Part shown: piece by piece, positions 604-61,056 of the stretch
Numbering within the stretch: the first letter of the stretch is position 1
Layout of the letters: each line of letters begins with the position of its first letter
Source of the DNA: Prosopocoilus inquinatus
Taxonomy: Eukaryota; Arthropoda; Insecta; Coleoptera; Lucanidae
Length of the DNA: 64,000 bases
Assembly: GCA_036172665.1 (NCBI GenBank)
Contig: CM069878.1
Coordinates: forward strand, 21,214,501-21,278,500
Reading direction: 5' to 3'
Position numbers and translations under genes: made by a program
The notes under the pieces: generated by a model
What the model was told of the DNA's origin: nothing
The model's database searches: none
What the model saw: only the letters and a program-made list of their open reading frames with translations

Positions 604-928
604 TGTGGCGAGCCAACCTGACTTAGCGCAAGGCGTCAAGAAGTCGGTCCGCTGTTGTGTCATCGGCCGTCACGCGGTCGGGGCCTACATCGAACAAACT
701 AGAATCTTCCAGCGTAGAGACTTCCAGACGCCAGCAAATGATATAAAATCGCCCGGAGTTGACTCACCAGGCAGTCGAATTCGAACAGCGATCGCCGAAG
801 TTAGATTTTAGTGTGAAAATAAATTGTTAGAAATAAATTAGTTTTTAAGCTTTATTAAATTACGGTTAAGTTTTTATCGAGTGTTTTATTCGTTTAAATA
901 AATAAACATAAACCCTAGAAACGTAACA
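604..928 (+). repeat. 5' LTR of E1
   Basis: The LTR begins TGTGGCGAGCC and ends CGTAACA, with TG..CA termini. It matches 6670-6996 almost exactly. It contains a TATA box, several AATAAA-type poly(A) signals (about 818-835) and a GC-richer U3. Confidence 0.95.
742..776 (+). promoter_or_regulatory. Core promoter in E1 5' LTR
   Basis: TATAAAA lies at 742-748. About 30 bp downstream is GCAGTCG, close to the arthropod initiator TCAGTC, and the solo LTR at 48554 has TCAGTC exactly at this place. The TATA/initiator spacing supports a start site near 772, which would begin the R region. Confidence 0.6.
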
Positions 929-946
929 GTGGTGTCGGTGTGCGGG
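929..946 (+). other. Primer binding site of E1 (tentative)
   Basis: Directly after the LTR end is GTGGTGTCGG. The TGGTGTC core is shared with E2 (50260) and the distant E3 (34312). This is the position of a tRNA primer binding site. The tRNA was not identified. Confidence 0.5.
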
Positions 947-1029
947 TTTGTGCAAATAAATAAACAATTTAAAGTAAATTAAATTTAATCAGATTATTAA
1001 ATAAGTACAGTATAGGAAGAAAAAAAACA

Positions 1030-2556
1030 ATTGCTACGAGAAAAGTGTTGTTGAAAGACTTAAAAGTGGCCGAATTAAAAACCGAATTGGAAGAACGAGA
1101 GTTAGAAACCTGTGGTTTGAAAGGCGCACTTCAACAGCGTCTCCGATCCGATTTGTTGACAGCTGGTGAAGATCCAGAGACGTTCCTTTTCGAAATTTCG
1201 TGTGGTCCCGTCGATTTTAATAAAATCTTGAAAGATGAATTTCGAGAACAATCCAGAAATTTCAAGGACGAACTTCGAGAACAATCCAGAAATTTGGACG
1301 AGAAGTTTCTAGAACAATCTGGAAAATTCAAGGACGAACTTCGAGAACAATCCAGAAATTTGGACGAGAAGTTTCAAGAACAGTCTGGAAATTTAGAGAA
1401 GCTTCGAGAACAATCCAGAAATTTAGAGGAGAAACTTCTAGAACAATCTGGAAATTTCGACAAATTACAAAATAAATTGTTGGAACAATCTAGAGACTTA
1501 GACGAGAAATTTCTAGAGCAATCCAGAAATTTCGACGAGAAACTTCTAGAACAGTCCGGAAATTTGAAGGGTGAATTTCTAGAACAGACGAAAGGACTCG
1601 AAGATAAACTAGTGGTAAAAATATCGGAAGAAACAAGAAACCTGCAAGAAAATGTAGAAGAAATAATATTCCAGCAGGATAACAAAATCAAAAATCTGGA
1701 ACAAATCATGGCGGGGTTGCGAGTGTTCGGGGATCAGCCACCAGTAGAAGTACTAGAAAATAATGAAACCCGAATTGTGGAAGGACCAGCAGAAAATTCG
1801 AAATTAAAAATAAAACCACCAACGTTCGATGGAAAGTCTTCTTGGCCCAACTACTTCAAACAGTTCGAAGCAGCAGCAAAGGCAAACAGATGGACGGCCA
1901 GCGAAAAAGCCACTTCGTTAATTGTGGCCTTGAGAGGGGACGCTATCGATGTGCTACAGACGATGCCGCCAGAGGAACAAGAAGACTTCGACAAGCTGGT
2001 GAATAGGATGGAAATGCGTTACGGACAGGCCCATCTGACCGAGGTATACCACGCGCAGTTGAGGAATCGCTGTCAGAAATCCGGAGAAACTCTTCAGGAA
2101 TTCGAAGCAGACGTTGCGCGTCTGGCCCAGTTGGCATATCCCACAGCTCCTGTTGAATTCCTCAAATGTTTGACGGTGCAGACCTTCATAGATGGAATCC
2201 GTGACCCAGACAATCAGCAGGCATTGAGAATGACCCATCCGAAGACGTCCAAGAACGCATTGGCTTATGCCTTGGAATTTGAAGCGGCGAGACGAGTTTC
2301 AAGAGGGCATGTCAAGGTGCGAGCGGCTATGGACTTCCAAGAGGAAGAAGAAGAAGAGTCCGCCAACGCCAAGGTGGGATCTGCTAATAAGGGGCAATCC
2401 AAGGAATATGCCACCGCCGAGGATGTTCGCCGCATTGTGGAACAGGTCCTCAAGCAGAAGAAGCCGCTGGTGTGTTGGAATTGCCAGGAGGAAGGACATG
2501 TTCGTAGGCGATGTCCAAAACCCAGACAGGATCCAAGGAAGCCACAGTTAAACTAA
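1030..2556 (+). CDS. gag: E1 Gag with SAP domain; start codon lost
   Basis: This is the structural polyprotein expected to form the particle and bind element RNA. Order: SAP-type helix-loop-helix (KVAELKTELEERELETCGLK region, about 1045-1160); then a hydrophilic repeat of about 11-residue units with REQSRNL and LEQSGNF variants (about 1222-1570), a predicted coiled coil; then a retrotransposon capsid region (about 1800-2320); an acidic run; and one CX2CX4HX4C zinc knuckle (CWNCQEEGHVRRRC). In E2 translation starts at ATG; here that codon is ATT (1030-1032), and the first in-frame ATG lies only near 1708, after the SAP domain and coiled coil. The reading frame is otherwise open. It has two more coiled-coil units than E2. 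Confidence 0.9.
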   Translation: MATRKVLLKDLKVAELKTELEERELETCGLKGALQQRLRSDLLTAGEDPETFLFEISCGPVDFNKILKDEFREQSRNFKDELREQSRNLDEKFLEQSGKFKDELREQSRNLDEKFQEQSGNLEKLREQSRNLEEKLLEQSGNFDKLQNKLLEQSRDLDEKFLEQSRNFDEKLLEQSGNLKGEFLEQTKGLEDKLVVKISEETRNLQENVEEIIFQQDNKIKNLEQIMAGLRVFGDQPPVEVLENNETRIVEGPAENSKLKIKPPTFDGKSSWPNYFKQFEAAAKANRWTASEKATSLIVALRGDAIDVLQTMPPEEQEDFDKLVNRMEMRYGQAHLTEVYHAQLRNRCQKSGETLQEFEADVARLAQLAYPTAPVEFLKCLTVQTFIDGIRDPDNQQALRMTHPKTSKNALAYALEFEAARRVSRGHVKVRAAMDFQEEEEEESANAKVGSANKGQSKEYATAEDVRRIVEQVLKQKKPLVCWNCQEEGHVRRRCPKPRQDPRKPQLN

Positions 2557-3371
2557 GCCGGGTCGGTGCAGAGGGGCAAACGTCGACCCGTATTCAAAGG
2601 CCCCCAAAGACGAAAGCCAACCAAGTAATATCCCTACGGCAGTTAACCAGCAGTATCTTCGTGGATGTTACCATTGATGACATTCCTCACACCATGTTAT
2701 TGGATACGGGTGCGACGAAGACCATCCTAAGACCCGACGTAATTAAGTCATCTGGACGCACCGAGCCGACCAAGTGGAGACTGAAAACTGCAACTGGAAC
2801 ATCAGCAACTGTCCACGGTGAAGTAGAGGTTATCATCACCATTGGTTCAACTCCAATAAAACACCGTGCACTGGTAGCAGACATAGAGGACGAGGCAATT
2901 TTGGGCATGGACGTCATGTGTGCCCACGGGTTTCAATTGGACTTAAAGCGTGGCGTGATGGCGGTCAATAATGAGGAGTTGGTTCTATATCAACGAGGAG
3001 ACGTGGCCGCTCGAGTAGTCCTCTCTGAAGACGTTGTATTACCCAGCAGGACTGAGGTTATCGTCGACGCAAAACTGAACGGTGTTTTTCAAGATGGGCA
3101 GGTCGTTATGGTTGAACCTAATACAGATGATCAGAAGATTGGAAGAGGAGTCCTCGTTGGGAAAATGTTGTTGACGGCGAAGAAGGAAGTACCTGTCCGC
3201 CTGATGAACGTCAATTGTTTCTCTGTCAATATCAAGAAAGGAACAATCTTGGGAAGCTGCACCATGGTGTCCTCCATCTCCCGGCAACTTGAAACAAACG
3301 TGCCAGAAGCGAAAGTCCCAAAGAAATTATGGGAAATGGTTATGTCAACAGCCCAGGAATTGACTGATTGA
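2511..3371 (+). CDS. pro: E1 aspartic protease (pro), in the -1 frame to gag
   Basis: This is a retropepsin-type aspartic protease that would process the polyproteins. The active site is LLDTGATKT (DTG near 2703-2711) after a hydrophobic VFVDVTI-type strand, and the ILGMDVM motif (about 2899-2920) is the C-terminal ILG-D/R-like motif of the family. The open frame begins inside gag. Its ATG at 2511 is in the overlap and probably not used; entry by frameshift near 2553 fits better. The frame ends at TGA 3369-3371, where all three frames stop. It is unusual for a gypsy element to have protease in a frame separate from both gag and pol. Confidence 0.88.
   Translation: MSKTQTGSKEATVKLSRVGAEGQTSTRIQRPPKTKANQVISLRQLTSSIFVDVTIDDIPHTMLLDTGATKTILRPDVIKSSGRTEPTKWRLKTATGTSATVHGEVEVIITIGSTPIKHRALVADIEDEAILGMDVMCAHGFQLDLKRGVMAVNNEELVLYQRGDVAARVVLSEDVVLPSRTEVIVDAKLNGVFQDGQVVMVEPNTDDQKIGRGVLVGKMLLTAKKEVPVRLMNVNCFSVNIKKGTILGSCTMVSSISRQLETNVPEAKVPKKLWEMVMSTAQELTD
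2547..2605 (+). promoter_or_regulatory. Candidate -1 frameshift signal, gag to pro (E1)
   Basis: In the gag frame, the heptamer G TTA AAC (2547-2553) directly precedes the gag stop TAA (2554-2556). GTTAAAC is a known natural -1 slippery heptamer. After a 5-nt spacer comes CGGGTCGGTG (2559-2568), which pairs with CGTCGACCCG (2581-2590): ten pairs including two G.U. Loop bases GGGGC (2573-2577) can pair with GCCCC (2600-2604), giving an H-type pseudoknot. The pro frame is -1 to gag and open here. The signal is identical in E2, and the layout is conserved with a different stem in E3. Confidence 0.75.
3361..3371 (+). other. Three-frame stop cluster at the pro/pol junction (E1)
   Basis: TGACTGATTGA contains a TGA in each frame: 3361-3363, 3365-3367 and 3369-3371. 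The pol frame opens immediately after the middle stop. The same 11 bases occur in E2, so the feature belonged to the active parent. No slippery heptamer is visible. Confidence 0.8.
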
Positions 3372-6300
3372 TTTACCAGAAGACAAAAGCAAAGAATCTG
3401 ATCGGCCGCTATCAAGATGTATTTGAGGTAGAAAATGGATCCAAGGGAAGAACTGATGTGAAACACAAAATAGAGACTGGAGAAGAAAGACCTATCCGTC
3501 AAGCTCCAAGGCGATTACCGTTGGCAAAGCGTGAGGAAGCGGAACGCATTATTCGCGAGATGGAAAAGGATAATGTGATAGAATCATCAAGCAGCCCGTG
3601 GGCGTCACCAGTAGTGCTTGTGAAGAAGAAGGATGGGTCCACCAGATTCTGTGTAGACTACCGGTTACTCAACAATGTCACCAAGAAGGACAGCTATCCC
3701 CTGCCACGGATTGATGATACCCTGGACACCCTAGCCGGCTCAAAGATCTTCTCAACTTTGGACTTAAAGAGTGGATATTGGCAAGTGGAGCTGGCGCCCG
3801 AAGATCGAGAAAAGACGGCGTTTTCCATTGGTATGGGTCTGTGGCAGTTCACAGTGATGCCATTCGGATTATGTAATGCCCCAGCGACATTCGAGAGGTT
3901 AATGGAGACGGTTCTGAAAGGTCTGTCCTGGACAACGTGCATGGTGTACCTTGATGACATAATTGTCGTGGGAAAGACGTTCGACGACCACCTAAGAAAC
4001 CTGGAAGGAGTGTTCCAGCGGCTTCGCGGAGCTGGCCTAAAGCTTAGCCTCAAGAAGTGTCACCTGTTCCAGAAGGAAGTGAATTACCTGGGGCACATTG
4101 TTAATGGAAATGGAATCGCCGTGGACCCTGTGAAGATTCAGGTGGTGAGAGACTGGCCAACTCCCAGAAATAAACACCAAATAAGGAGTTTCCTTGGCCT
4201 GTGCACTTACTATCGGCGCTACGTTCCTGGATTTGCAGACATTGCTAAGCCGTTAACAAAACTCACTGAAGAAGGTCGTCCATTTGAATGGGACCAACAG
4301 TGTCAAATTGGCTTTGAACAACTAAAGCAGTACTTGGTTAGTGCTCCTATTCTGAGTTATCCTCTCCCGGAAGGCAAGTTCGTCGTGGACACAGATGCTA
4401 GCAACGTTGGGATTGGTGGCGTACTCTCCCAGATACAAGAGGGGCAAGAGAAGGTGATCGGCTACTTCAGTAAAGTCCTATCAAAGCCGGAACGAAACTA
4501 TTGCGTCACAAGAAGGGAATTGCTAGCCGTCGTAAAAACGATAGAACACTTCTACAAGTACTTGTATGGTAGACGCTTCCTGCTGAGGACCGACCACGCC
4601 GCTCTAAAATGGCTTCTCCGTTTCAAGAACCCAGAAGGGCAAGTTGCACGATGGATCGAACGACTTCAGGAGTACGATTTTGAAATTCAGCATCGGGCAG
4701 GAACTAGCCATCGAAATGCCGATGCTCTGTCGAGAAGACCCTGTGCCGAAGACTGTAAGCACTGTAGTCGTTTGGACGAGAAAGTAGCCACGACTGCGAG
4801 GACAGCCATTGTTGATGACAAATGGCAAGGCGAAGAACTGCGAAAAGACCAGGAGAACGACCCGGATTTGAAATTAGTGCTAGAATGGAAAAGCAGGGAC
4901 GCGAGGCCTACCTGGGAAGAGGTAGCACCATGTGCACCGTCCGTAAAATCATACTGGGCGCAGTGGGACTCCATAGTGTTGGATCGTGGTCTTCTGAGAC
5001 GAAGCATAGAGAATCAGGAAGGCATGGAACAGAAGACACAGTTACTGATCCCCAAGAATAGGGTGCCAGAAGTTCTGAGGGAACTTCACGATGGAACTTC
5101 CGGAGGACATCTGGGAGTTAAGAAGACTATGGAGAAGGTGCGCGAAAGATTTTACTCGGTGAACTGCAAGGAAGACGTGAAGGATTGGTGCAGAAAGTGT
5201 ACAGTTTGCGCAGCCAGTAACGGTCCCCACAGGCGGGGTAAGGCTCCCATGAGACAGTACAACGTTGGAAGTCCTTTTGAGAGAGTTGCCATCGATGTAG
5301 CCGGCCCGTTTCCAGAAACGAATGGTGGAAACAAGTACATCGTCGTGGTAATGGACTACTTTAGTAAGTGGGTTGAAGCTTACGCCCTACCTAACCAAGA
5401 GGCGGTCACTATTGCGGAAGTCCTTGTCAGGGAATGGATCAGTCGGTATGGTGCACCTATGGAACTGCATTCAGACCAAGGAAGGAACTTTGAATCGGCC
5501 TTGTTCAAGAACGTGTGTACTCTGCTCGGCGTACGAAAAACTAGAACAACTGCACTCCACCCACAGTCGGACGGAATGGTGGAAAGGTTCAATAGAACCA
5601 TCAACCGACATTTGTCCAAGGTCGTTTCCAATCATCAGAGGGACTGGGACACGTACATCCCCCTGTTTCTAATGGCATACCGCTCATCTGTTCATGAGAC
5701 AACAGGGGAGACTCCCGCGAAAGTGGTATTCGGGCGAGAGCCGAGACTGCCCTGCGACCTGAAGTTTGGTGTGAAGCCTGGCGAAGTCTCTGCCGACGAA
5801 GATTACGTGAGCAAATTACGCAGGAAAATGGATGATATCCACAACCAAGTGCGTCACAATATACAGACGGCCAGCGATCGGATGAAGGAGCACTATGACA
5901 TCAACGCTCAACACGGGGGATACCAACCTGGAGCACTGGTCTGGCTTTATAACCCCCAAAGACGTCGAGGCCTCTCCCCAAAATTACAGACCTCTTGGGA
6001 AGGTCCTTACAAAGTGGTGAAACGGATCAACGACGTCGTTTACCGCATCAAGAAGGTCCCCCATGGCAAACCCAAAGTAATCCACTTCAACCGGATAGCC
6101 CCTTACCATGGAGAAGCAGATGAAGGGACAGTACAAAGGGCGCAAGTTTCCGAAGTGAACTTCGAAACCTTCATGTCTCATCACGCCGAAGGAAGCAAGG
6201 CACGGTTTGGAGTGACCCCGGAGAAGCAACAAGATCTCTTTAAAGTACCACTGGAGTACAGTCTGGCCCACTGCGTAGCAGAAGACCTGAAAATGTCCAA

Positions 6301-6487
6301 AGGAATCGCTCAGGTGTCTAGGAAGAAATTTGGCCAAATCGAGGAGCCTGAGGAGACAGCTAATAGAGAACCATCAGATGAAGTTAGCCATCCCCAAATT
6401 GGGCTGCGGATTGGACGGACTAGACTGGAGAGTAATTCGAAGCATGCTGGAAGTCATCTTCCACAGTCCCGTTCTGTGGAAGATTGA
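3368..6487 (+). pseudogene. pol: E1 Pol (RT, RNase H, integrase) with truncated macrodomain
   Basis: Replication and integration enzymes in one frame. The RT palm has MPFG and YLDD (near 3950). RNase H has the VDTDAS, RREL, RTDHA and NADALSRR motifs (about 4380-4735). Integrase follows with an HHCC zinc site (about 5085-5215) and a DD35E core whose first Asp is intact (AIDVAGPF), then a GPY/F module (about 5930-6110). The C-terminal macrodomain starts normally but loses 146 bp at 6346/6347 relative to E2, shifting frame to a stop at 6485-6487. There is no ATG at the frame opening; the first is at 3560. RT to integrase look intact. The CCCH finger is left in a detached frame downstream. Confidence 0.92.
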
Positions 6488-6687
6488 AGATTGAAGTCCT
6501 AGTCTGCAGCCACCACCCACAGGCAACAGTCAGCAACAGCAAAACCGTAGACTGTTACTTCTTCCAGGCGGGAAGTTGCAAGAATGGGCCAGCATGTAGA
6601 TTCCGACACCCTCCTTCAAGACTATCACCAGGAACATTTCGAGACGAAACGTTTCTAAGAAGGGGGCAGTGTGGCGAGCCAACCTGA
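6484..6687 (+). pseudogene. Detached CCCH zinc-finger tail of E1 Pol
   Basis: A 67-codon open stretch matches the last residues of E2 Pol. It carries the end of the macrodomain (EVLVCSHHP) and a complete CX7CX5CX3H zinc finger (about 6553-6609). It is out of frame with E1 pol because of the upstream deletion and the inverted insertion near 6468. It runs through the polypurine tract and ends at TGA 18 nt inside the 3' LTR. Confidence 0.75.
6657..6669 (+). other. Polypurine tract of E1
   Basis: AAGAAGGGGGCAG immediately precedes the 3' LTR. This is the plus-strand primer site. In E2 the same bases are also coding, in the Pol tail. Confidence 0.8.
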
Positions 6688-6996
6688 CTTAGCGCAAGGC
6701 GTCAAGAAGTCGGTCCGCTGTTATGTGTCATCGGCCGTCACGCGGTCGGGGCCTACATCGAACAAACTAGAATCTTCCAGCGTAGAGACTTCCAGACGCC
6801 AGCAAATGATATAAAATCGTCCGGAGTTGACTCACCAGGCAGTCGAATTCGAACAGCGATCGCCGAAGTTAGATTTTAGTGTGAAAATAAATTGTTAGAA
6901 ATAAATTAGTTTTTAAGCTTTATTAAATTACGGTTAAGTTTTTATCGAGTGTTTTATTCGTTTAAATAAATAAACATAAACCCTAGAAACGTAACA
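6670..6996 (+). repeat. 3' LTR of E1
   Basis: TGTGGCG..GTAACA, near-identical to 604-928, followed by the duplicated target GTAT at 6997-7000. Confidence 0.95.
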
Positions 6997-7000
6997 GTAT

Positions 7001-33611: not shown

Positions 33612-34337
33612 ATATTTAAAAAAGCTGTGGACTGTAATTTTCCGCCGTGTCCCACATGTGACTGTCAGACTCTGGATAATGGAACTTGAAATGTAATTAG
33701 ATGTAGCAAGTTCCAAAACCAATAAGGATAAAAACGAGGTTCAGTGCCCAGTCCAAAGAGCCGTAGGCAATATTTGACCAAAACAAATGCTATTTAAGCA
33801 GAACTTACAGTTTCTCGTAATAGCAGTTGACTCTTGTCCGATTCAAGATTAAAAGCTTACAGTTTTTCGTTTATTATGTTATATTCCTATTGTAAACGCT
33901 TGTAGTTATTATAAATTTATATTTTGCCTCAATAAAATGGAAATTTAAAGTAATCTGCCTCATTTTTCGTCTTGATTTACATAAAATAATTCAGTTTGTC
34001 ATTATTGACAACCCACTCGTTCAAAGTCAAATACCCACTGTCGCGTGTCAAAAACATATGATGGCAGTACCTGTATCCTTAGACAGAGATCGAGTGCCTT
34101 AAGTCGTACGATCCGGCAGGAGTGATTAGTTATAACGTTAGCGAGATAAGGATTCGTACATCGAATAAATAGAAAATACATTTTGTAAAAGTGTTTTTTG
34201 ATAGACAACCTCATTACAATTGTGTTGTTAATTGTGTAAAGCGATAGCTTTGAATTAAAGTGTTCTGAAATTTATCGACTATAATTTGTGAACCCCAAAT
34301 TCGTAACAAATTGGTGTCAGAAGCGGAAATTTCAAGA

Positions 34338-48553: not shown

Positions 48554-48879
48554 TGTGGCGCGCCAACCGGCTTAGCGCAAGGCGTCAAGAAGTCGGTTCG
48601 CTGTTATGTGTCATCGGCCGTTACGTCACCGGGGCCTACATCGAACAGACTAGATTTCTCCAGCGTGGAGGAGTCCAGACGACGGCGAATGATATAAAAT
48701 CGCCCCGGGTTGACTCAGCAGTCAGTCGAATTCGAACAGCGATCGTCGAAGTTAGATTTTAGTGTGAAAATAAATTGTTACAAATAAATTAGTTTTTAAG
48801 CTTTATTAAATTACGGTTAAGTTTTCATCGAGTGTTTTATTCGTTTAAATAAATAAATTAAAACCCTAGAAACGTAACA
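48554..48879 (+). repeat. Solo LTR of the E1/E2 family
   Basis: Starts TGTGGCGCGCC, ends CGTAACA, and has ATAT on both sides (48550-48553 and 48880-48883). It is visibly more diverged from the E1/E2 LTRs than they are from each other. The clean duplication around a single LTR means loss of the internal part by LTR-LTR recombination. Confidence 0.92.
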
Positions 48880-49931: not shown

Positions 49932-50258
49932 TGTGGCGAGCCAACCTGACTTAGCGCAAGGCGTCAAGAAGTCGGTTCGCTGTTATGTGTCATCGGCCGT
50001 CACGCGGCCGGGGCCTACATCGAACAAACTAGAATCTTCCAGCGTAGAGACTTCCAGACGCCAGCAAATGATATAAAATCGCCCGGAGTTGACTCACCAG
50101 GCAGTCGAATTCGAACAGCGAACGTCGAAGTTAGATTTTAGTGTGAAAATAAATTATTACAAATAAATTAGTTTTTAAGCGTTATTAAATTACGGTTAAG
50201 TTTTTATCGAGTGTTTTATTCGTTTAAATAAATAAACTCAAACCCTAGAAACGTAACA
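49932..50258 (+). repeat. 5' LTR of E2
   Basis: TGTGGCG..GTAACA, 327 bp, TATAAAA at about 50070. Followed by TGGTGTCAGG (50260-50269), the presumed primer site. Confidence 0.95.
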
Positions 50259-50356: not shown

Positions 50357-51820
50357 ATGGCTACGAGAAAAGTGTTGTTGAAAGACTTAAAAGTGGCCGA
50401 ATTAAAAACCGAATTGGAAGAACGAGAGTTAGAAACCTGTGGTTTGAAAGGCGCACTTCAACAGCGTCTCCGATCCGATTTGTTGACAGCTGGTGAAGAT
50501 CCAGAGACCTTCCTTTTTGAAATTTCGTGTGGTCCCGTCGATTTTAATAAAATCTTGAAAGATGAACTTCGAGAACAATCCAGAAATTTCAAGGACGAAC
50601 TTCGAGAACAATCCAGAAATTTGAACGAGAAGTTTCTAGAACAATCTGGAAATTTCAAGGAAGAACTTCGAGAACAATCCAGAAATTTAGAGGAGAAGCT
50701 TCTAGAACAATCTGGAAATTTCGACAAATTACAAAATAAATTGTTGGAACAATCTAGAGACTTAGACGAGAAATTTCTAGAGCAATCCAGAAATTTCGAC
50801 GAGAAACTTCTAGAACAGTCCGGAAATTTGAAGGGTGAATTTCTAGAACAGACGAAAGGACTCGAAGATAAACTAGTGGTAAAAATATCGGAAGAAACAA
50901 GAAACCTGCAAGAAAATGTGGAAGAAATAATATTCCAGCAGGATAACAAAATCAAAAATCTGGAACAAATCATGGCGGGGTTGCGAGTGTTCGGGGATCA
51001 ACCACCAGTAGAAGTACTAGAAAATAATGAAACCCGAATTGTGGAAGGACCAGCAGAAAATTCGAAATTAAAAATAAAACCACCAACGTTCGATGGAAAG
51101 TCTTCTTGGCCCAACTACTTCAAACAGTTCGAAGCAGCAGCAAAGGCAAACAGATGGACGGCCAGCGAAAAAGCCACTTCGTTAATTGTGGCCTTGAGAG
51201 GGGACGCTATCGATGTGCTACAGACGATGCCGCCAGAGGAACAAGAAGACTTCGACAAGCTGGTGAATAGGATGGAAATGCGTTACGGACAGGCCCATCT
51301 GACCGAGGTATACCATGCGCAGTTGAGGAATCGCTGTCAGAAATCCGGAGAAACTCTTCAGGAATTCGAAGCAGACGTTGCGCGTCTGGCCCAGTTGGCA
51401 TATCCCACAGCTCCTGTTGAATTCCTCAAATGTTTGACGGTGCAGACCTTCATAGATGGAATCCGTGACCCAGACAACCAGCAGGCATTGAGAATGACCC
51501 ATCCGAAGACGTCCAAGAACGCATTGGCTTATGCCTTGGAATTTGAAGCGGCGAGACGAGTCTCAAGAGGGCATGTCAAGGTGCGAGCGGCTATGGACTT
51601 CCAAGAGGAAGAAGAGGAAGAATCCGCTAACGCCAAGGTGGGATCTGCTATAAAGGAGCGACCCAGGGAGTATACCACCGCCGAGGATGCTCGCCCCATT
51701 GTGGAACAGGTCTTCAAGCAGAAGAAGCCGCTGGTGTGTTGGAATTGCCAGGAGGAAGGAAATGTTCGCAGGCGATGTCCAAAGCCCAGACAGGATCCAA
51801 GGAAGCCACAGTTAAACTAA
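50357..51820 (+). CDS. gag: E2 Gag with SAP domain; zinc knuckle His lost
   Basis: 487 residues from ATG 50357. SAP domain at residues about 6-42 (DLKVAELKTELEERELETC), coiled-coil repeats about 62-155, capsid about 230-405 (PPTFDGKSSWPNYFKQFE, QTFIDGIRDPDN), acidic stretch about 422-430. The knuckle CWNCQEEGNVRRRC has Cys461, Cys464, Asn469 and Cys474; the third ligand is His in E1 and in the family (AAT at 51761-51763). SAP domains bind DNA or chromatin scaffold elsewhere in eukaryotes; a role in nuclear or chromatin targeting here is inference. The frame ends directly after the slippery heptamer 51811-51817. Confidence 0.92.
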   Translation: MATRKVLLKDLKVAELKTELEERELETCGLKGALQQRLRSDLLTAGEDPETFLFEISCGPVDFNKILKDELREQSRNFKDELREQSRNLNEKFLEQSGNFKEELREQSRNLEEKLLEQSGNFDKLQNKLLEQSRDLDEKFLEQSRNFDEKLLEQSGNLKGEFLEQTKGLEDKLVVKISEETRNLQENVEEIIFQQDNKIKNLEQIMAGLRVFGDQPPVEVLENNETRIVEGPAENSKLKIKPPTFDGKSSWPNYFKQFEAAAKANRWTASEKATSLIVALRGDAIDVLQTMPPEEQEDFDKLVNRMEMRYGQAHLTEVYHAQLRNRCQKSGETLQEFEADVARLAQLAYPTAPVEFLKCLTVQTFIDGIRDPDNQQALRMTHPKTSKNALAYALEFEAARRVSRGHVKVRAAMDFQEEEEEESANAKVGSAIKERPREYTTAEDARPIVEQVFKQKKPLVCWNCQEEGNVRRRCPKPRQDPRKPQLN

Positions 51821-52635
51821 GCCGGGTCGGTGCAGAGGGGCAAACGTCGACCCGTATTCAAAGGCCCCCAAAGACAAAAGCCAAACAAGTAATATCCCTA
51901 CGGCAGTTAACCAGCAGTGTCTTCGTGGATGTCACCATTGATGACATTCCTCACACCATGTTGTTGGATACGGGTGCGACGAAGACCATCCTAAGACCCG
52001 ACGTCATTAAGTCATCTGGACGCACCGAGCCGACCAAGTGGAAACTGAAAACTGCAACTGGAACATCAGCAACTGTCCACGGTGAAGTAGAGGTTATCAT
52101 CACCATTGGTTCAACTCCAATAAAACACCGTGCACTGGTGGCAGATATAGAGGACGAGGCAATTTTGGGCATGGACGTCATGTGTGCCCACGGGTTCCAA
52201 TTGGACTTAAAGCGTGGCGTGATGGCGGTCAATAATGAGGAGTTGGTTCTACATCAACGAGGGGACGTGGCCGCTCGAGTAGTCCTCGCTGAAGACGTTG
52301 TATTACCCAGCAGGACTGAGGTTATCGTCGACGCAAAACTGGACGGTGTTTTTCAAGATGGGCAAGTCATTATGGTTGAACCTAATACTGATGATCAAAG
52401 GATTGGAAGAGGAGTCCTCGTTGGGAAAATGTTGTTGACGGCGAAGAAGGAAGTACCTGTCCGCCTGATTAACGTCAATTGTTTCTCTGTCAATATCAAG
52501 AAAGGAACAATCTTGGGAAGCTGCACCATGGTGTCCTCCATCTCCCGGCAACTTGAAACAAACGTGCCAGAAGCGAAAGTCCCAAAGAAATTATGGGAAA
52601 TGGTTATGTCAACAGCCCAGGAATTGACTGATTGA
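51775..52635 (+). CDS. pro: E2 aspartic protease (pro)
   Basis: Retropepsin-type protease in the -1 frame relative to gag, with LLDTGATKT and ILGMDVM motifs. ATG 51775 lies in the gag overlap, and entry by frameshift at 51817 is more likely. The frame ends at TGA 52633-52635 in the same TGACTGATTGA cluster as E1. Several silent and conservative differences from E1 suggest constraint before insertion. Confidence 0.88.
   Translation: MSKAQTGSKEATVKLSRVGAEGQTSTRIQRPPKTKAKQVISLRQLTSSVFVDVTIDDIPHTMLLDTGATKTILRPDVIKSSGRTEPTKWKLKTATGTSATVHGEVEVIITIGSTPIKHRALVADIEDEAILGMDVMCAHGFQLDLKRGVMAVNNEELVLHQRGDVAARVVLAEDVVLPSRTEVIVDAKLDGVFQDGQVIMVEPNTDDQRIGRGVLVGKMLLTAKKEVPVRLINVNCFSVNIKKGTILGSCTMVSSISRQLETNVPEAKVPKKLWEMVMSTAQELTD
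51811..51869 (+). promoter_or_regulatory. Candidate -1 frameshift signal, gag to pro (E2)
   Basis: Base-for-base the same as in E1: GTTAAAC 51811-51817, TAA stop 51818-51820, stem CGGGTCGGTG (51823-51832) with CGTCGACCCG (51845-51854), loop GGGGC (51837-51841) with GCCCC (51864-51868). Confidence 0.75.
52625..52635 (+). other. Three-frame stop cluster at the pro/pol junction (E2)
   Basis: TGACTGATTGA, identical to E1 3361-3371. Pol opens in the frame of the middle stop. Confidence 0.8.
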
Positions 52636-55600
52636 TTTACCAGAAGACAAAAGCAAAGAATCTGATCGGCCGTTATCAAGATGTATTCGAGGTAGAAGAT
52701 GGATCCAAGGGAAGAACTGATGTCGTGAAACACAAAATAGAGACTGGAGAAGAAAGACCTATCCGTCAAGCTCCAAGGCGATTACCGTTGGCAAAGCGTG
52801 AGGAAGCGGAACGCATTATTCGCGAGATGGAAAAGGATAATGTGATAGAACCATCAAGCAGCCCGTGGGCGTCACCAGTAGTGCTTATGAAGAAGAAGGA
52901 TGGGTCCACCAGATTCTGTGTAGACTACCGGTTACTCAACAATGTCACCAAGATGGACAGCTATCCCCTGCCACGGATTGATGATACCCTGGACACCCTA
53001 GCCGGCTCAAAGATCTTCTCAACTTTGGACTTAAAGAGTGGATATTGGCAAGTGGAGCTGGCGCCTGAAGATCGAGAAAAGACGGCGTTTTCCTTTGGTA
53101 TGGGTCTGTGGCAGTTCACAGTGATGCCATTCGGATTATGTAATGCCCCAGCGACATTCGAGAGGTTAATGGAGACGGTTCTGAAAGGTCTGTCCTGGAC
53201 AACGTGCATGGTGTACCTTGATGACATAATTGTCGTGGGAAAGACGTTCGACGACCACCTAAGGAACCTGGAAGGAGTGTTCCAGCGGCTTCGCGGAGCT
53301 GGCCTAAAGCTTAGCCTCAAGAAGTGTCACCTATTCCAGAAGGAAGTGAATTACCTGGGGCACATTGTTAATGGAAATGGAATCGCCGTGGACCCTGTGA
53401 AGATTCAGGTGGTGAGAGACTGGCAAACTCCCAGAAATAAACACCAAATAAGGAGTTTCCTTGGCCTGTGCACTTACTATCGGCGCTACGTTCCTGGATT
53501 TGCAGACATTGCTAAGCCGTTAACAAAACTCACTGAAGAAGGTCGTCCATTTGAATGGGACCAACAGTGTCAAATTGGCTTTGAACAACTAAAGCAGTAC
53601 TTGGTTAGTGCTCCTATTCTGAGTTATCCTCTCCCGGAAGGCAAGTTCGTCGTGGACACAGATGCTAGCAACGTTGGGATTGGTGGCGTACTCTCCCAGA
53701 TACAAGAGGGGCAAGAGAAGGTGATCGGCTACTTCAGTAAAGTCCTATCAAAGCCGGAACGAAACTATTGCGTCACAAGAAGGGAATTGCTAGCCGTCGT
53801 AAAAACGATAGAACACTTCTACAAGTACTTGTATGGTAGACGCTTCCTGCTGAGGACCGACCACGCCGCTCTAAAATGGCTTCTCCGTTTCAAGAACCCA
53901 GAAGGGCAAGTTGCACGATGGATCGAACGACTTCAGGAGTACGATTTTGAAATTCAGCATCGGGCAGGAACTAGCCATCGAAATGCCGATGCTCTGTCGA
54001 GAAGACCCTGTGCCGAAGACTGTAAGCACTGTAGTCGTTTGGACGAGAAAGTAGCCACGACTGCGAGGACAGCCATTGTTGATGACAAATGGCAAGGCGA
54101 AGAACTGCGAAGAGACCAGGAGAACGACCCGGATTTGAAATTAGTGCTAGAATGGAAAAGCAGGGACGCGAGGCCTACCTGGGAAGAGGTAGCACCATGT
54201 GCACCGTCCGTAAAATCATACTGGGCGCAGTGGGACTCCATAGTGTTGGATCGTGGTCTTCTGAGACGAAGCATAGAGAATCAGGAAGGCATGGAACAGA
54301 AGACACAGTTACTGATCCCCAAGAATAGGCTGCCAGAAGTTCTGAGGGAACTTCACGATGGAACTTCCGGAGGGCATCTGGGAGTTAAGAAGACTATGGA
54401 GAAGGTGCGCGAAAGATTTTACTGGGTGAACTGCAAGGAAGACGTGAAGGATTGGTGCAGAAAGTGTACAGTTTGCGCAGTCAGTAACGGTCCCCACAGG
54501 CGGGGTAAGGCTCCCATGAGACAGTACAACGTTGGAAGTCCTTTTGAGAGAGTTGCCATCCATGTAGCCGGCCCGTTTCCAGAAACGAATGGTGGAAACA
54601 AGTATATCGTCGTGGTAATGGACTACTTTAGTAAGTGGGTTGAAGCTTACGCCCTACCTAACCAAGAGGCAGTCACTATTGCGGAAGTCCTTGTCAGGGA
54701 ATGGATCAGTCGGTATGGTGCACCTATGGAACTGCATTCAGACCAAGGAAGGAACTTTGAATCGGCCTTGTTCAAGAACGTGTGTACTCTGCTCGGCGTA
54801 CGAAAAACTAGAACAACTGCACTCCACCCACAGTCGGACGGAATGGTGGAAAGGTTCAATAGAACCATCAACCGACATTTGTCCAAGGTCGTTTCCAATC
54901 ATCAGAGGGACTGGGACACGTACATCCCCCTGTTTCTAATGGCATACCGCTCATCTGTTCATGAGACAACAGGGGAGACTCCCGCGAAAGTGGTATTCGG
55001 GCGAGAGCCGAGACTCCCCTGCGACCTGAAGTTTGGTGTGAAGCCTGGCGAAGTCTCTGCCGACGAAGATTACGTGAGCAAATTACGCAGGAAAATGGAT
55101 GATATCCACAACCAAGTGCGTCACAATATACAGACGGCCAGCGATCGGATGAAGGAGCACTATGACATCAACGCTCAACACGGGGGATACCAACCTGGAG
55201 CACTGGTCTGGCTTTATAACCCCCAAAGACGTCGAGGCCTCTCCCCAAAATTACAGACCTCTTGGGAAGGTCCTTACAAAGTGATGAAACGGATCAACGA
55301 CGTCGTTTATCGCATCAGGAAGGTCCCCCATGGCAAACCCAAAGTAATCCACTTCAACCGGATAGCCCCTTACCATGGAGAAGCAGATGAAGGGACAGTA
55401 CAAAGGGCGCAAGTTTCCGAAGTGAACTTCGAAACCTTCATGTCTCATCACGCCGAAGGAAGCAAGGCACGGTTTGGAGTAACCACGGAGAAGCAACAAG
55501 ATCTCTTTAAAGTGCCACTGGAGTACAGTCTGGCCCACTGCGTAGCAGAAGACCTGAAAATGTCCAAAGGAATCGCTCAGGTGTTTAGGAAGAAATTTGG

Positions 55601-56084
55601 CCAAATCGAGGAGCTACGAAGACAGCATCCCGTGGTAGGCAAGAGCTTGCAGATCATTGATTCGACGGCAGATCGGAGGCGCCACGTGCATTATTTAGTC
55701 ACTAAGAAGACATCAAGCGGTAAACCTGACTATGTGACTATGTGGAGAGCCCTATATAGCCTGAGGAGACAGCTAATAGAGAACCATCAGATGAAGTTAG
55801 CCATCCCCAAATTGGGCTGCGGATTGGACGGACTAGACTGGAGAGTAATTCGAAGCATGCTGGAAGTCATCTTCCACAGAACGGGAATTGAAGTCCTAGT
55901 CTGCAGCCACCACCCACAGGCAACAGTCAGCAACAGCAAAACCGTAGACTGTTACTTCTTCCAGGCGGGAAGTTGCAAGAATGGGCCAGCATGTAGATTC
56001 CGACACCCTCCTTCAAGACTATCACCAGGAACATTTCGAGATGAAACGTTTCTAAGAAGGGGGCAGTGTGGCGAGCCAACCTGA
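52632..56084 (+). CDS. pol: E2 Pol: RT, RNase H, integrase, TARG1-like macrodomain, CCCH finger
   Basis: 1150-codon frame with no ATG at its opening (first ATG is residue 66). RT about 60-260 (MPFG 165-168, YLDD 195-198). RNase H about 338-455. Integrase zinc site H575/H582/C612/C615. The core has His644 where the family and E1 have catalytic Asp, then Asp704 and Glu740 (35 residues between). GPY/F about 852-915. Residues about 955-1092 resemble the TARG1/OARD1 macrodomain: SLAHCVAEDLKM..GIAQVFRKKFG, YLVTKK and PKLGCGLDGLDW; Lys1025 and Asp1066 sit 41 apart as in the human enzyme's catalytic pair. A CX7CX5CX3H finger follows (C1107, C1115, C1121, H1125). The frame runs through the PPT and stops inside the LTR. 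The ADP-ribosyl hydrolase role is inferred. Confidence 0.92.
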   Translation: MIYQKTKAKNLIGRYQDVFEVEDGSKGRTDVVKHKIETGEERPIRQAPRRLPLAKREEAERIIREMEKDNVIEPSSSPWASPVVLMKKKDGSTRFCVDYRLLNNVTKMDSYPLPRIDDTLDTLAGSKIFSTLDLKSGYWQVELAPEDREKTAFSFGMGLWQFTVMPFGLCNAPATFERLMETVLKGLSWTTCMVYLDDIIVVGKTFDDHLRNLEGVFQRLRGAGLKLSLKKCHLFQKEVNYLGHIVNGNGIAVDPVKIQVVRDWQTPRNKHQIRSFLGLCTYYRRYVPGFADIAKPLTKLTEEGRPFEWDQQCQIGFEQLKQYLVSAPILSYPLPEGKFVVDTDASNVGIGGVLSQIQEGQEKVIGYFSKVLSKPERNYCVTRRELLAVVKTIEHFYKYLYGRRFLLRTDHAALKWLLRFKNPEGQVARWIERLQEYDFEIQHRAGTSHRNADALSRRPCAEDCKHCSRLDEKVATTARTAIVDDKWQGEELRRDQENDPDLKLVLEWKSRDARPTWEEVAPCAPSVKSYWAQWDSIVLDRGLLRRSIENQEGMEQKTQLLIPKNRLPEVLRELHDGTSGGHLGVKKTMEKVRERFYWVNCKEDVKDWCRKCTVCAVSNGPHRRGKAPMRQYNVGSPFERVAIHVAGPFPETNGGNKYIVVVMDYFSKWVEAYALPNQEAVTIAEVLVREWISRYGAPMELHSDQGRNFESALFKNVCTLLGVRKTRTTALHPQSDGMVERFNRTINRHLSKVVSNHQRDWDTYIPLFLMAYRSSVHETTGETPAKVVFGREPRLPCDLKFGVKPGEVSADEDYVSKLRRKMDDIHNQVRHNIQTASDRMKEHYDINAQHGGYQPGALVWLYNPQRRRGLSPKLQTSWEGPYKVMKRINDVVYRIRKVPHGKPKVIHFNRIAPYHGEADEGTVQRAQVSEVNFETFMSHHAEGSKARFGVTTEKQQDLFKVPLEYSLAHCVAEDLKMSKGIAQVFRKKFGQIEELRRQHPVVGKSLQIIDSTADRRRHVHYLVTKKTSSGKPDYVTMWRALYSLRRQLIENHQMKLAIPKLGCGLDGLDWRVIRSMLEVIFHRTGIEVLVCSHHPQATVSNSKTVDCYFFQAGSCKNGPACRFRHPPSRLSPGTFRDETFLRRGQCGEPT
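56054..56066 (+). other. Polypurine tract of E2
   Basis: AAGAAGGGGGCAG, directly before the 3' LTR and inside the Pol reading frame. Confidence 0.8.
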
Positions 56085-56365
56085 CTTAGCGCAAGGCGTC
56101 AAGAAGTCGGTTCGCTGTTATGTGTCATCGGCCGTCACGCGGCCGGGGCCTACATCGAACAAACTAGAATCTTCCAGCGTAGAGACATCCAGACGCCAGC
56201 AAATGATATAAAATCACCAGGCAGTCGAATTCGAACAGCGAACGTCGAAGTTAGATTTTAGTGTGAAAATAAATTATTACAAATAAATTAGTTTTTAAGC
56301 TTTATTAAATTACGGTTAAGTTTTTATCGAGTGTTTTATTCGTTTAAATAAATAAACTCAACTCA
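56067..56365 (+). repeat. 3' LTR of E2, two internal deletions
   Basis: Compared with the 5' LTR, it lacks 15 bp just after the TATA box (GCCCGGAGTTGACTC) and about 13 bp near the 3' end, but still ends CA before the duplicated GTAT. The first deletion moves TATA about 15 bp closer to the presumed start site. Confidence 0.88.
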
Positions 56366-59277: not shown

Positions 59278-61056
59278 AATTGAAATCAACCTCCGCTCAT
59301 AATAATTTTTATATCCGTAGATACCGATGAGAAGTTAGCAATAAAATTCCAGCAATAAAATTATAAAATTTCAAAACGCTGCCACCGCTAAAATAACGAT
59401 CACAGATCAATAATATTTAATCTATTACAAAGAGTATAATGTGTAGATTCCCCTCATATGAAGAAACTGAAAAAATATTTGATATTAAGTTAACTATGAC
59501 TATTTAAACCAGCATAAGTCATTATTTATATATCGCACCAAAACAATTGCTTTCACTGAAAATTTTCACGTAGTCATAAAGTAAACATACATATCTATTT
59601 AATAATGCCTTCAGAAAGTTTTAGCCGGTTGATTTGAAGTAATTAGAAATTAATTAAAAGTGACGCACAGATCAATGAAACAGTACCAATTTCAAATGTT
59701 CATAACTTTTCTCAGAGAACTTGCATAAAAATTGTGTTTGCAGAATATTAAAGCACGGATCGAAATCTATCGTTTAAACCACCCTCTGAGTTTTAGCCGG
59801 TTGGTTTGAAGTAATTAGAAATTAATTAAAAGTGACGCACAGACCAATTTCAAATGTTCATAACTTTCCATTCCGAACTTGCATAAAAATTCTGTTTGCA
59901 GAATATTAAAGCACGGATCGAAATCTATCGTTTAAGCCACCCTCTGAGTTTTAGCCGGTTGGTTTGAAGTAATTAGAAATTAATTAAAAGTGACGCACAG
60001 ACCAACTTCAAATGTTCATAACTTTCCATTCCGCACTTGCATAAAAATTCTGTTTGCAGAATATTAAAGCACGGATCGAAATCTATCGTTTAAACCACCC
60101 TCTGAGTTTTAGCCGGTTGGTTTGAAGTAATTAGAAATTAATTAAAAGCGTCATTTTTATTAATATCTAATAACTTCAAATCAACCGGGTAAAACTCAGA
60201 GGGTGGTTAAAACGATAGATTTCGATCCGTGCTTTAATATTCTGCAAACAGAATTTTTATGCAAGTGCGGAATGGAAAGTTATGAACATTTGAAATTGGT
60301 ACTGTTTCGTTGATTTGTGCGCCACTTTTAATTAATTTCTAATTACTTCAAATCAACCGGCTAAAACTAAGAGGGTGGTTTAAACGATAGATTTCGCTCT
60401 GTGCTTTAATATTTTGCAAACAGAATTTTTATGCAAGTGCGGAAAGGAAAGTTATGAACATTTGAAATTGGTCTGTGCGTCACTTTTAATTAATTTATAA
60501 TTACTTCAAACCAACCGGCTAAACCTCAGAGGTTGGCTTAAACGTTAGATTTCGATCCGTGCTTTTATATTCTACAAACAGAATGTTTATGCGAATACTG
60601 CATTAAAAGATATGGACGTTCAAAATTAGAATTATTTTATTGCTGGGAATGCCACAATTAATTAATTTTCTAATTACTTTAAATCAACCGGCTAAAACTT
60701 TCTGAAGGCATTATTAAATAGATATGTATGTTTACTTTATGCCTACGTGAAAATTTTCAGTGAAAGCAATTGTTTTGGTGCGATATATGAATAATGACTT
60801 ATGCTGGTTTAAATAGTCATAGTTAACTTAATATCAAATATTTTTTCAGTTTCTTCATATGAGGGGAATCTACACATTATAATCTTTGTAATAGATTAAA
60901 TATTATTGATCTGTGATCGTTATTTTAGCGGTGGCAGCGTTTTGAAATTTTATAATTTTATTGCTGGAATTTTATTGCTAACTTCTCATCGGTTCCGTAG
61001 ATACGTATATAAAATGGATATAAAAATTATTGTGGGCGGAGGTTAATTTCAATTAT
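59278..61056. mobile_element. Giant palindrome (~880-bp arms) with 158-bp tandem units
   Basis: The outer arms (GAAATCAACCTCCGCTCATA.. and its inverse) are nearly identical to about 59600 and 60720. The inner part is an array: units starting TTTTAGCCGG at 59619, 59791, 59949 and 60107 (158-bp spacing for the last three), then the same units inverted at about 60187, 60360, 60517 and 60690. The centre is near 60150. The ends match the 14829-15533 foldback. No coding sequence. Confidence 0.88.

What the first reader, a model, noticed from the sequence alone, without database searches (positions are those of the whole stretch)
55494..56006. Gypsy retrotransposon Pol fused to a TARG1/OARD1-like macrodomain and a CCCH zinc finger
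Seen: after the GPY/F module, E2 Pol continues in frame with a segment whose motif order (SLAHC-x-AED, GIAQVF-x-KKFG, YL-x-TKK, P-K-x-GCGLD-x-LxW) follows the TARG1/OARD1 macrodomain. Lys1025 and Asp1066 keep the 41-residue spacing of the catalytic Lys/Asp of that enzyme. A CX7CX5CX3H finger follows. Known: TARG1 removes ADP-ribose from Glu/Asp; macrodomains of some RNA viruses counter host PARP-based defence, and CCCH fingers bind RNA. Inference: the element captured a host hydrolase, perhaps to reverse ADP-ribosylation of its RNP, of integrase-bound chromatin, or of a host block. I know of no described LTR element with this tail.
Basis: partly seen in the sequence, partly recalled or inferred. 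Interest (0 to 1): 0.96.

Follow-up and report, generated by a model that had tools for sequence, protein, structure and literature searches.

The report
Retrotransposon integrase carrying ADP-ribose eraser
This jumping element carries behind its integrase a TARG1-type domain, also found in sequences from six named beetle species, that is predicted to strip ADP-ribose tags and was likely captured once from an insect gene, which would suggest that insects use ADP-ribose tagging against such elements.

Summary
The 1150-residue Pol of a Ty3/gypsy element (52632-56084) runs in frame, after the integrase GPY/F module, into a macrodomain (55494-55910) and a CX7CX5CX3H finger (55950-56006). The macrodomain matches human TARG1 by sequence (E 8e-29) and predicted fold (1.2 A, TM 0.95); Pfam's general Macro model misses it. 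Catalytic Lys and Asp are kept in 27 of 27 chosen element tails. The tail recurs in six named beetle species and unnamed sequence sets. The 27 tails form one clade (99/97); tail and integrase distances track each other (r 0.78, 11 rows). This fits one old capture, likely from an insect, perhaps beetle, OARD1 gene. The finger is less constant (missing or altered in 4 of 26 rows). A review reports macrodomain ORFs in fish retroviruses; a TARG1-type tail behind a Ty3/gypsy integrase was not found in my searches. Best mechanism: an eraser that undoes host ADP-ribosylation of the element's RNP or integration complex. Activity and target are inferred. The window's other copy has a broken tail.

The parts
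49932..50258 (+). 5' LTR of the element (E2), TG...CA
   Evidence: matched by the 3' LTR and by E1's LTRs
50357..51820 (+). gag: SAP domain at the N terminus, 33-nt (11-residue) repeats, CCHC-type knuckle with one ligand changed in this copy
   Evidence: SAP PF02037 27.4 bits, cut-off 23.9; knuckle read by eye
51736..52635 (+). protease ORF (aspartyl protease)
   Evidence: PF13975 42.2 bits
52632..56084 (+). pol ORF, 1150 codons; stop codon lies inside the 3' LTR
52890..53369 (+). reverse transcriptase
   Evidence: PF00078 E 8e-37, residues 87-246
53556..53942 (+). RNase H-like domain
   Evidence: PF17919/PF17917
54315..54488 (+). integrase H2C2 zinc-binding domain
   Evidence: PF17921 71.4 bits
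54582..54821 (+). integrase core (one expected core catalytic residue changed in this copy relative to E1 and the full-length relatives read)
   Evidence: PF00665 44 bits; change read by eye
55269..55370 (+). integrase C-terminal GPY/F (p58 C, SH3-like) module
   Evidence: PF22938 45.9 bits; beta strands there in the model
55494..55910 (+). TARG1/OARD1-type macrodomain, residues 955-1093
55704..55706 (+). codon of Lys1025 (TARG1 K84)
55827..55829 (+). codon of Asp1066 (TARG1 D125)
55950..56006 (+). CCCH zinc finger CX7CX5CX3H, residues 1107-1125
   Evidence: PF00642 27.2 bits; best PDB kin CPSF4 E 8.8e-9
56054..56066 (+). purine-rich tract (likely PPT) just before the 3' LTR; encodes part of the conserved C-terminal LRRGQC
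   Evidence: sequence; motif recurs in element tails, that stretch is of low confidence in the model
56067..56361 (+). 3' LTR, 3' end missing relative to the 5' LTR, 15-nt internal deletion
604..6996 (+). E1, second copy of the family (98.2% identical to E2); 4-bp duplication GTAT at 600-603 and 6997-7000; its macrodomain is broken by a 146-nt deletion at 6344/6345 and a 16-nt insertion at 6465-6480

Best explanation
Pol of this Ty3/gypsy LTR element ends, behind the integrase GPY/F module, in a TARG1-type macrodomain and a CCCH finger, a tail that was likely captured once from an insect OARD1 gene and is predicted to be a working ADP-ribose eraser that would undo host ADP-ribosylation of the element's own RNP or integration complex. 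Shown: the domain's identity by sequence and predicted fold, the kept catalytic Lys and Asp, the single clade of element tails, and distances that track those of the integrase. Inferred: that it hydrolyses ADP-ribose; that its targets are Asp/Glu-linked ADP-ribose on integrase-bound proteins, or ADP-ribose on nucleic acid ends, both known TARG1 substrates; that the finger holds the eraser on element RNA and came from elsewhere than OARD1. The likely writer is a nuclear PARP: Drosophila has only one, and mobile elements misregulated in its absence are mainly upregulated (PMC7712786, passages).
For: TARG1 sequence match E 8e-29 and fold match rmsd 1.2 A, TM 0.95. TARG1 K84, D125, T83 and the second Gly of GxG kept in 27 of 27 element rows; H32 in 25 of 25 and C33 in 24 of 25 rows with a residue there. 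A pure reader would not need the lysine nucleophile so strictly (inference). The 27 element tails form one clade (99/97; 96% of 200 bootstrap trees), on the other side of a 98/99 branch from 20 of 21 prokaryotic/viral-contig rows. W1038, kept in 26 of 27 elements, occurs in only 3 of 53 other rows, which group together (94/84) as host-like OARD1: Photinus, Aromia, one unnamed. A tree holding elements with those three is 6 lnL better than the free search (p 0.635, so not proof). Tail and integrase-core identities correlate, r 0.78 over 11 rows (55 pairs), 0 of 2000 permutations; tail and RT 0.55 over 7 rows, not permuted. The macrodomain is better conserved (mean 57%, 20 comparisons) than the linker before it (40%, 20). 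Convergence: the best viral fold match is VP8 of Kadipiro virus, a Seadornavirus, and P0151, of the same length (456 aa), has a dsRNA-binding motif plus a TARG1-type macrodomain 44% identical to this one. TARG1 acts on MARylated proteins and on ADP-ribose at nucleic acid ends (PMC7050489 passages) and on thymidine-linked DNA ADP-ribose (PMC8501950 abstract).
Against: No activity was measured. S35 of TARG1, a ribose contact, is Ala in 21 of 25 element rows with a residue there, and the first Gly of GxG is Ala or Ser in 10 of 27; the strict published TARG1 pattern fits only 19 of 140 aligned sequences, though it fits the window's. dN/dS could be taken from one pair only (E1/E2: 3 synonymous, 2 nonsynonymous in 159 tail codons, 0.19), too few to tell it from the rest of Pol (0.37). 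E1, 98% identical, has lost the domain, and E2 itself is damaged in gag and integrase, so neither copy here is shown to be active. Insects are not known to me to have the vertebrate antiviral PARPs (recalled), so a defence to counter is not established; the Drosophila authors say element upregulation may be indirect. The finger is absent or altered in 4 of 26 rows (gene models or contig ends may explain some). 110 of the 120 proteins listed are from one species. The donor is not resolved.
Confidence: 0.45

Rival explanations
1. Chromodomain analogue: the macrodomain mainly reads ADP-ribose on chromatin and tethers integrase to PARP-marked sites such as DNA breaks, as the chromodomain of chromovirus integrases tethers them to methylated histone.
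For: It sits behind the GPY/F module, where chromoviruses carry their chromodomain (position recalled); their integrase chromodomain binds nucleosomes and can steer integration (PMC3601003 passages). ALC1-like macrodomains include readers (PMC7050489). The linker before it has low confidence in the model.
Against: The catalytic lysine is invariant in 27 of 27 rows, more than a reader should need. No integration-site data.
Confidence: 0.2
2. Nucleic-acid eraser: the tail removes ADP-ribose from ends of the element's RNA or cDNA, with the CCCH finger holding the RNA; no protein target is involved.
For: TARG1 clears ADP-ribose from nucleic acid ends and thymidine; a dsRNA virus protein pairs the same kind of macrodomain with a dsRNA-binding motif, and such a virus has no integrase (recalled).
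Against: The finger is absent or altered in 4 of 26 rows while the macrodomain stays; no RNA ADP-ribosylation in beetles is known to me (not searched).
Confidence: 0.2
3. Passenger: a host exon was transduced once and is carried without use; conservation reflects general constraint on the Pol reading frame.
For: E1 lost it; only one copy pair could be tested for selection.
Against: At about 57% mean identity between families the frame is open and active-site residues are fixed, while the linker drifts to 40%; a passenger should have lost catalytic residues in some of about 18 element families (70% clusters).
Confidence: 0.07
4. Artefact or chance resemblance: no real macrodomain.
For: Pfam Macro below its cut-off.
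Confidence: 0.01

Closest known systems
TARG1 / OARD1 / C6orf130 (ALC1-like macrodomain ADP-ribosylhydrolase)
   Same: 36-37% identity in the structural alignments with its crystal structures, same predicted fold (rmsd 1.2 A), K84/D125/T83/H32/C33 equivalents, 41-residue Lys-Asp spacing
   Different: Here it is the C-terminal tail of an LTR-element Pol, followed by a CCCH finger; S35 is mostly Ala in the element family, the first Gly of GxG is Ala or Ser in 10 of 27 rows; activity untested
Fish Epsilon-like endogenous retroviruses with extra ORFs for macro domain proteins (cited as Basta et al. 2009 in PMC4977317)
   Same: A retroelement that carries a macrodomain (passage)
   Different: Extra ORF in a vertebrate retrovirus, macrodomain type not stated in the passage; not a Pol tail, not Ty3/gypsy. 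The 2009 paper, looked up under a DOI that I recalled, is not held
Chromoviruses (Ty3/gypsy with integrase chromodomain)
   Same: A domain of chromatin-related type attached to integrase; position behind GPY/F recalled
   Different: Chromodomain there, macrodomain plus CCCH here; no chromodomain hit in this Pol
Kadipiro virus VP8 (Seadornavirus) and P0151
   Same: TARG1-type macrodomain joined to an RNA-binding module in a genetic parasite
   Different: dsRNA virus, dsRNA-binding motif instead of CCCH; P0151 lies outside the element clade. That P0151 is Kadipiro virus rests on equal length; the two were not compared with each other
DarG antitoxin macrodomain
   Same: Next fold matches after TARG1 (5m3e, 24% identity)
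   Different: NCBIfam DarG scores 42 bits against a cut-off of 250
MacroD-type macrodomains of alphaviruses and coronaviruses
   Same: Overall macrodomain fold
   Different: Fold matches far behind TARG1 (E about 1e-6, 16-17% identity); different catalytic motif (recalled)

Membership tests
Ty3/gypsy (Metaviridae) LTR retrotransposon | pol order protease - RT - RNase H - integrase | tested here: met
   PF13975, PF00078, PF17917/17919, PF17921, PF00665, PF22938 in that order
Ty3/gypsy (Metaviridae) LTR retrotransposon | flanking LTRs with TG...CA ends and target-site duplication | tested here: met
   E1: LTRs 604-928 and 6670-6996 with GTAT duplication; E2: LTRs present, 3' end lost, duplication not readable
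Ty3/gypsy (Metaviridae) LTR retrotransposon | RT falls in the Ty3/gypsy clade of an RT tree | not tested
   no reference RT set was aligned; the clade within Ty3/gypsy is not assigned
Errantivirus (env-bearing gypsy) | env ORF after pol | tested here: not met
   pol stop 56082-56084 lies inside the 3' LTR that begins at 56067; no room for env
Chromovirus | chromodomain behind integrase | tested here: not met
   no chromodomain among Pfam hits up to E 1
TARG1/OARD1 (ALC1-like hydrolase) | closest in sequence to TARG1 among macrodomains of known structure | tested here: met
   TARG1 chains E 8.3e-29 to 1.3e-28; next macrodomain (5m3i, a DarG macrodomain) 8.7e-6
TARG1/OARD1 (ALC1-like hydrolase) | TARG1 fold | tested here: met
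   predicted model
TARG1/OARD1 (ALC1-like hydrolase) | catalytic K84 and D125 | tested here: met
   27 of 27 element rows; role of residues from PMC6397177 passages
TARG1/OARD1 (ALC1-like hydrolase) | published pattern TKx(30,35)Px[IL]GxGxD | tested here: met
   window copy fits; 19 of 140 aligned sequences fit the strict form, 131 of 140 a form of my own with Gly/Ala/Ser and small spacing changes
TARG1/OARD1 (ALC1-like hydrolase) | ADP-ribosylhydrolase activity | not testable with these tools
   needs enzyme assay
Pfam Macro PF01661 | score above the curated cut-off | tested here: not met
   17.6 bits against 22; beetle host-like OARD1 P0190 also below (18.4), P0155 just above (22.6); element P0134 above (32.7), element P0163 below (15.2)
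CCCH zinc finger PF00642 | score above the curated cut-off and CX7-8CX5CX3H ligands | tested here: met
   27.2 bits against 20.5
DarG antitoxin | NCBIfam equivalog cut-off | tested here: not met
   42 bits against 250

The most novel reading that the evidence does not exclude
Insects use ADP-ribosylation against genetic parasites, and parasites answer with stolen erasers: beetle Ty3/gypsy elements fused an insect TARG1 hydrolase plus an RNA-binding CCCH finger to integrase, and separately an insect-borne dsRNA virus (Kadipiro) joined a TARG1-type hydrolase to a dsRNA-binding motif. The integrase-borne eraser clears the element's RNP or integration site in cis, a role that I know of for no described retroelement domain.
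Probability: 0.3. Interest if true: 0.92.

Novelty: new variant of a known kind. Interest (0 to 1): 0.78.

Why it matters
Retroelements rarely keep captured host enzymes for long (recalled). Here a host-type ADP-ribose eraser sits behind the integrase, and related tails with fixed catalytic residues occur in beetles of two infraorders (Elateriformia and Cucujiformia). If active, it points to ADP-ribosylation as a barrier to retrotransposition in insects, which lack the vertebrate antiviral PARP set (recalled; Drosophila has one nuclear PARP, PMC7712786), and gives an enzyme assay that tests this directly. It also helps explain why most database names seen for these proteins are 'C3H1-type' or 'uncharacterized': Pfam's Macro model is flagged for none of the 120 proteins listed there.

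Tried and rejected
Chance resemblance and MacroD-type viral macrodomain: rejected. Bacterial or large-virus donor: the element tails lie across a 98/99 branch from 20 of 21 prokaryotic/viral-contig rows; one viral-contig row (L001) lies on the animal side. Vertebrate donor: not formally excluded (33 lnL worse, p 0.072). Exact host donor: unresolved, since 133 columns are few for 80 rows; elements plus the insect rows p 0.426. The test of elements with the Kadipiro-like rows did not finish. CCCH finger captured together with OARD1: a CCCH pattern was found in 0 of 32 host-like proteins, so a separate origin is likely. The conserved C-terminal LRRGQC was considered as a protein motif and set aside, because part of its DNA is the purine tract before the LTR and the stretch has low confidence in the model. 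GTDB contigs with the window's own tail: 22 pattern matches, none a relative; with the alignment: six loci, five Ruminococcus and one other Clostridia. Unseen rows: 13 of 133 hits and 1031 of 1151 were not listed and not examined; one search scored only 7997 candidates. The tree used the window plus 58 proteins that I chose from the hits seen and all 21 loci; none of these fell to the length filter. The 20 rows compared with the window include near-copies (P0049/P0004, P0124/P0144, P0081/P0096).
Full report
What is there. The element E2 spans 49932 to about 56361. It has a 5' LTR (49932-50258), gag (50357-51820, SAP domain at the N terminus), a protease ORF (51736-52635), pol (52632-56084) and a 3' LTR from 56067 whose last part is missing. 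Pfam gives the Ty3/gypsy order protease, RT, RNase H, H2C2, integrase core, p58-type C-terminal module. The pol stop codon lies inside the 3' LTR, so there is no room for env. A second copy, E1 (604-6996), is 98.2% identical over 6284 aligned bases and has both LTRs and a 4-bp duplication GTAT. The organism of the window is not given; kinship of the element suggests a beetle (inference).

The tail. After the GPY/F module the same frame continues for about 230 residues. Residues 955-1093 match human TARG1 (C6orf130/OARD1) with E 8e-29 over about 140 residues, while the next macrodomain in PDB, 5m3i, reaches 8.7e-6. AlphaFold2 with a 20-row alignment gave mean pLDDT 81.8, and Foldseek placed TARG1 structures in the first eight ranks (crystal structures: rmsd 1.2-1.3 A, TM 0.91-0.96 by target, 36-37% identity), then DarG. 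Pfam's Macro model alone would have missed it: 17.6 bits against a cut-off of 22; two beetle OARD1-like proteins sit at the same edge (18.4 and 22.6). Residues 1107-1125 form a CX7CX5CX3H finger that passes zf-CCCH; its best PDB kin is CPSF4. A second model, of residues 841-1150 (mean pLDDT 73.5), has beta strands over the SH3-like module, a low-confidence linker, the macrodomain, and a poorly modelled finger and end.

Catalytic site. In TARG1, K84 forms a covalent lysyl-ADP-ribose intermediate that is resolved with D125, and H32, C33, S35, T83 and D125 hold the distal ribose (PMC6397177, passages read). Lys1025 and Asp1066 are the equivalents of K84 and D125, 41 residues apart. Among the 27 chosen element rows, K84, D125, T83 and the second Gly of GxG are kept in 27 of 27; H32 in 25 of 25 and C33 in 24 of 25 rows with a residue there; S35 is Ala in 21 of 25 (also Ala in Photinus, Aromia, Ctenocephalides, Blattella and one Drosophila row); the first Gly of GxG is Gly in 17, Ala in 8, Ser in 2. 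Over the 140 sequences aligned (the window and 139 hits, mostly one Aromia family, six of them probably not element tails), Lys is kept in 136 of 137 and Asp in 140 of 140. The CCCH pattern is found in 117 of those 140 and the strict TARG1 pattern in 19.

Not a one-copy accident. A search with Pol residues 945-1150 gave 133 Pol-sized proteins at E<=0.001; of the 120 listed, 110 are from the longhorn beetle Aromia moschata, one from an Erysiphe pulchra assembly and nine from unnamed sets. Searches with the tail added Molorchus minor, Gonioctena quinquepunctata and Pyrocoelia pectoralis, Exocentrus adspersus and Brassicogethes aeneus. Families were looked up for Aromia (Cerambycidae), Gonioctena (Chrysomelidae), Brassicogethes (Nitidulidae) and Pyrocoelia (Lampyridae); Molorchus and Exocentrus as Cerambycidae are recalled. 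For Gonioctena and Brassicogethes the listed protein holds the tail without an integrase match, and for Pyrocoelia only the last residues of the integrase module, so the fusion there is inferred from kinship. At 70% identity the 140 sequences fall into 22 clusters, 18 of them element-like by my reading.

One capture, then joint descent. In an 80-row tree the 27 element tails form one clade (99/97; 96% of 200 bootstrap trees), across a 98/99 branch from 20 of 21 prokaryotic and viral-contig rows. The tree is short on columns (133) and does not resolve the donor. Hints point to insects, perhaps beetles. The non-element rows of highest identity are P0216 (47.8%), P0155 from Aromia (47.1%), P0151, the dsRNA-binding protein (47.0%), and P0190 from Photinus (46.7%). 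W1038, in 26 of 27 elements, occurs in 3 of 53 other rows: P0190, P0155 and P0216. A tree that holds elements with these three is 6 lnL better than the free search, not a significant difference (p 0.635); elements with the insect rows p 0.426, with vertebrates p 0.072. Macrodomain and integrase-core identities correlate across 11 rows (r 0.78; 0 of 2000 permutations), macrodomain and RT across 7 rows (r 0.55, not permuted), as expected if tail and Pol have travelled together. Mean identity to the window: RT 81%, RNase H 70%, integrase core 75%, GPY/F 71%, linker 40%, macrodomain 57%, CCCH 50% (6, 10, 10, 19, 20, 20 and 18 comparisons, near-copies included). The finger is the less constant part: missing or altered in 4 of 26 element rows, and the CCCH pattern occurs in 0 of 32 host-like proteins.

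Selection. Only E1 and E2 could be compared at DNA level: 3 synonymous and 2 nonsynonymous changes in 159 shared tail codons (ratio 0.19), against 10 and 13 in 939 codons of the rest of Pol (0.37) and 11 and 9 in 282 of protease (0.25). These counts are too small to rest on. E1's macrodomain is broken (146-nt deletion that takes out the catalytic lysine, 16-nt insertion), while E2's tail is intact but its gag knuckle and integrase core each carry a substitution that should damage them (read by eye). Neither copy is shown to be mobile. The window's own assembly could not be searched.

How it may work. TARG1 acts on MARylated proteins, can release whole polymers, and removes ADP-ribose from nucleic acid ends (PMC7050489, passages) and from thymidine in DNA (PMC8501950, abstract). 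An integrase complex makes nicked DNA, which would activate nuclear PARP (recalled). In Drosophila there is one nuclear PARP; of eight mobile elements significantly misregulated without it five are up, and ten more, nine of them gypsy-superfamily LTR elements, rise below that threshold; the authors say the effect may be indirect (PMC7712786, passages). I therefore favour an eraser that rides on Pol and undoes ADP-ribosylation of the element's RNP or integration complex. The position recalls the chromovirus integrase chromodomain, which binds nucleosomes (PMC3601003, passages; its place behind GPY/F is recalled), and this keeps the tether reading alive. A second parasite, Kadipiro virus (Seadornavirus; insect-borne, recalled), has the best viral fold match (VP8, 456 aa, E 3.7e-16); P0151, also 456 aa, pairs a dsRNA-binding motif with a TARG1-type macrodomain 44% identical to this one over 156 residues and lies outside the element clade. 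Two unrelated parasites joining an RNA-binding module to the same hydrolase type is the strongest hint, by inference, that the target is something insects do to parasite nucleoprotein.

What is known. Five searches of the paper library (1, 2, 19, 11 and 4 papers, of which 15 of the 19 were listed) showed no title or abstract opening that describes a macrodomain fused to an LTR-element Pol; of those papers I opened passages of two (PMC4977317, PMC7050489). The first, a review, states that fish Epsilon-like sequences occasionally include extra ORFs for macro domain proteins, so macrodomain capture by retroelements has a precedent. The Pol-tail position, the TARG1 type in an insect Ty3/gypsy element and the CCCH finger are what is new here as far as I could search. 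Most subscription papers and repeat databases were out of reach. One JGI fragment (P0142) bears the name O-acetyl-ADP-ribose deacetylase, and some UniRef names read Macro domain-containing protein.

Verdict. Identity of the domain is near certain; long-term retention across beetle elements is well supported; enzymatic activity is likely; the biological target is open.

Noticed in passing
P0151 and BFVD A0A8E0KJF2: Kadipiro virus VP8 appears to join a dsRNA-binding motif to a TARG1-type macrodomain, a parallel to this element; identity of P0151 with VP8 was not tested.
   Followed up: partly
window 52632-52635 and 3368-3371: In both window copies protease and RT-integrase are in different frames with a 4-base overlap, whereas in relatives such as P0010, P0066, P0081 and P0100 they are one ORF.
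   Followed up: no
window 50522-50862: Gag has 33-nt (11-residue) repeats whose number differs between copies (E1 has 63 nt more near there), behind a SAP domain.
   Followed up: no
window 34311-35552: Remains of a third, related gag (SAP domain; PNMA-like match just under the cut-off); no third Pol was found in the window.
   Followed up: partly
window 48571-48870: A 300-nt stretch 92% identical to part of the 5' LTR, probably a solo LTR of the family.
   Followed up: no
window 59323-60993: Inverted repeat with 336-nt arms 98% complementary around 158-nt tandem repeats; looks like a foldback-type element.
   Followed up: no
window 18477-18872 and 20687-21508: Transposase fragments: DDE_Tnp_4 type, and a Tc/mariner-like one just under the DDE_3 cut-off.
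   Followed up: partly
P0135, P0137, P0138, P0141, P0149, P0159: A set of alike unnamed TARG1-like proteins, most sharing a further C-terminal tail; possibly another multi-copy, perhaps mobile, macrodomain family.
   Followed up: partly
P0096 (EPUL_004988): A Pol of this element type in an Erysiphe pulchra (powdery mildew) assembly, probably insect DNA in that assembly.
   Followed up: no
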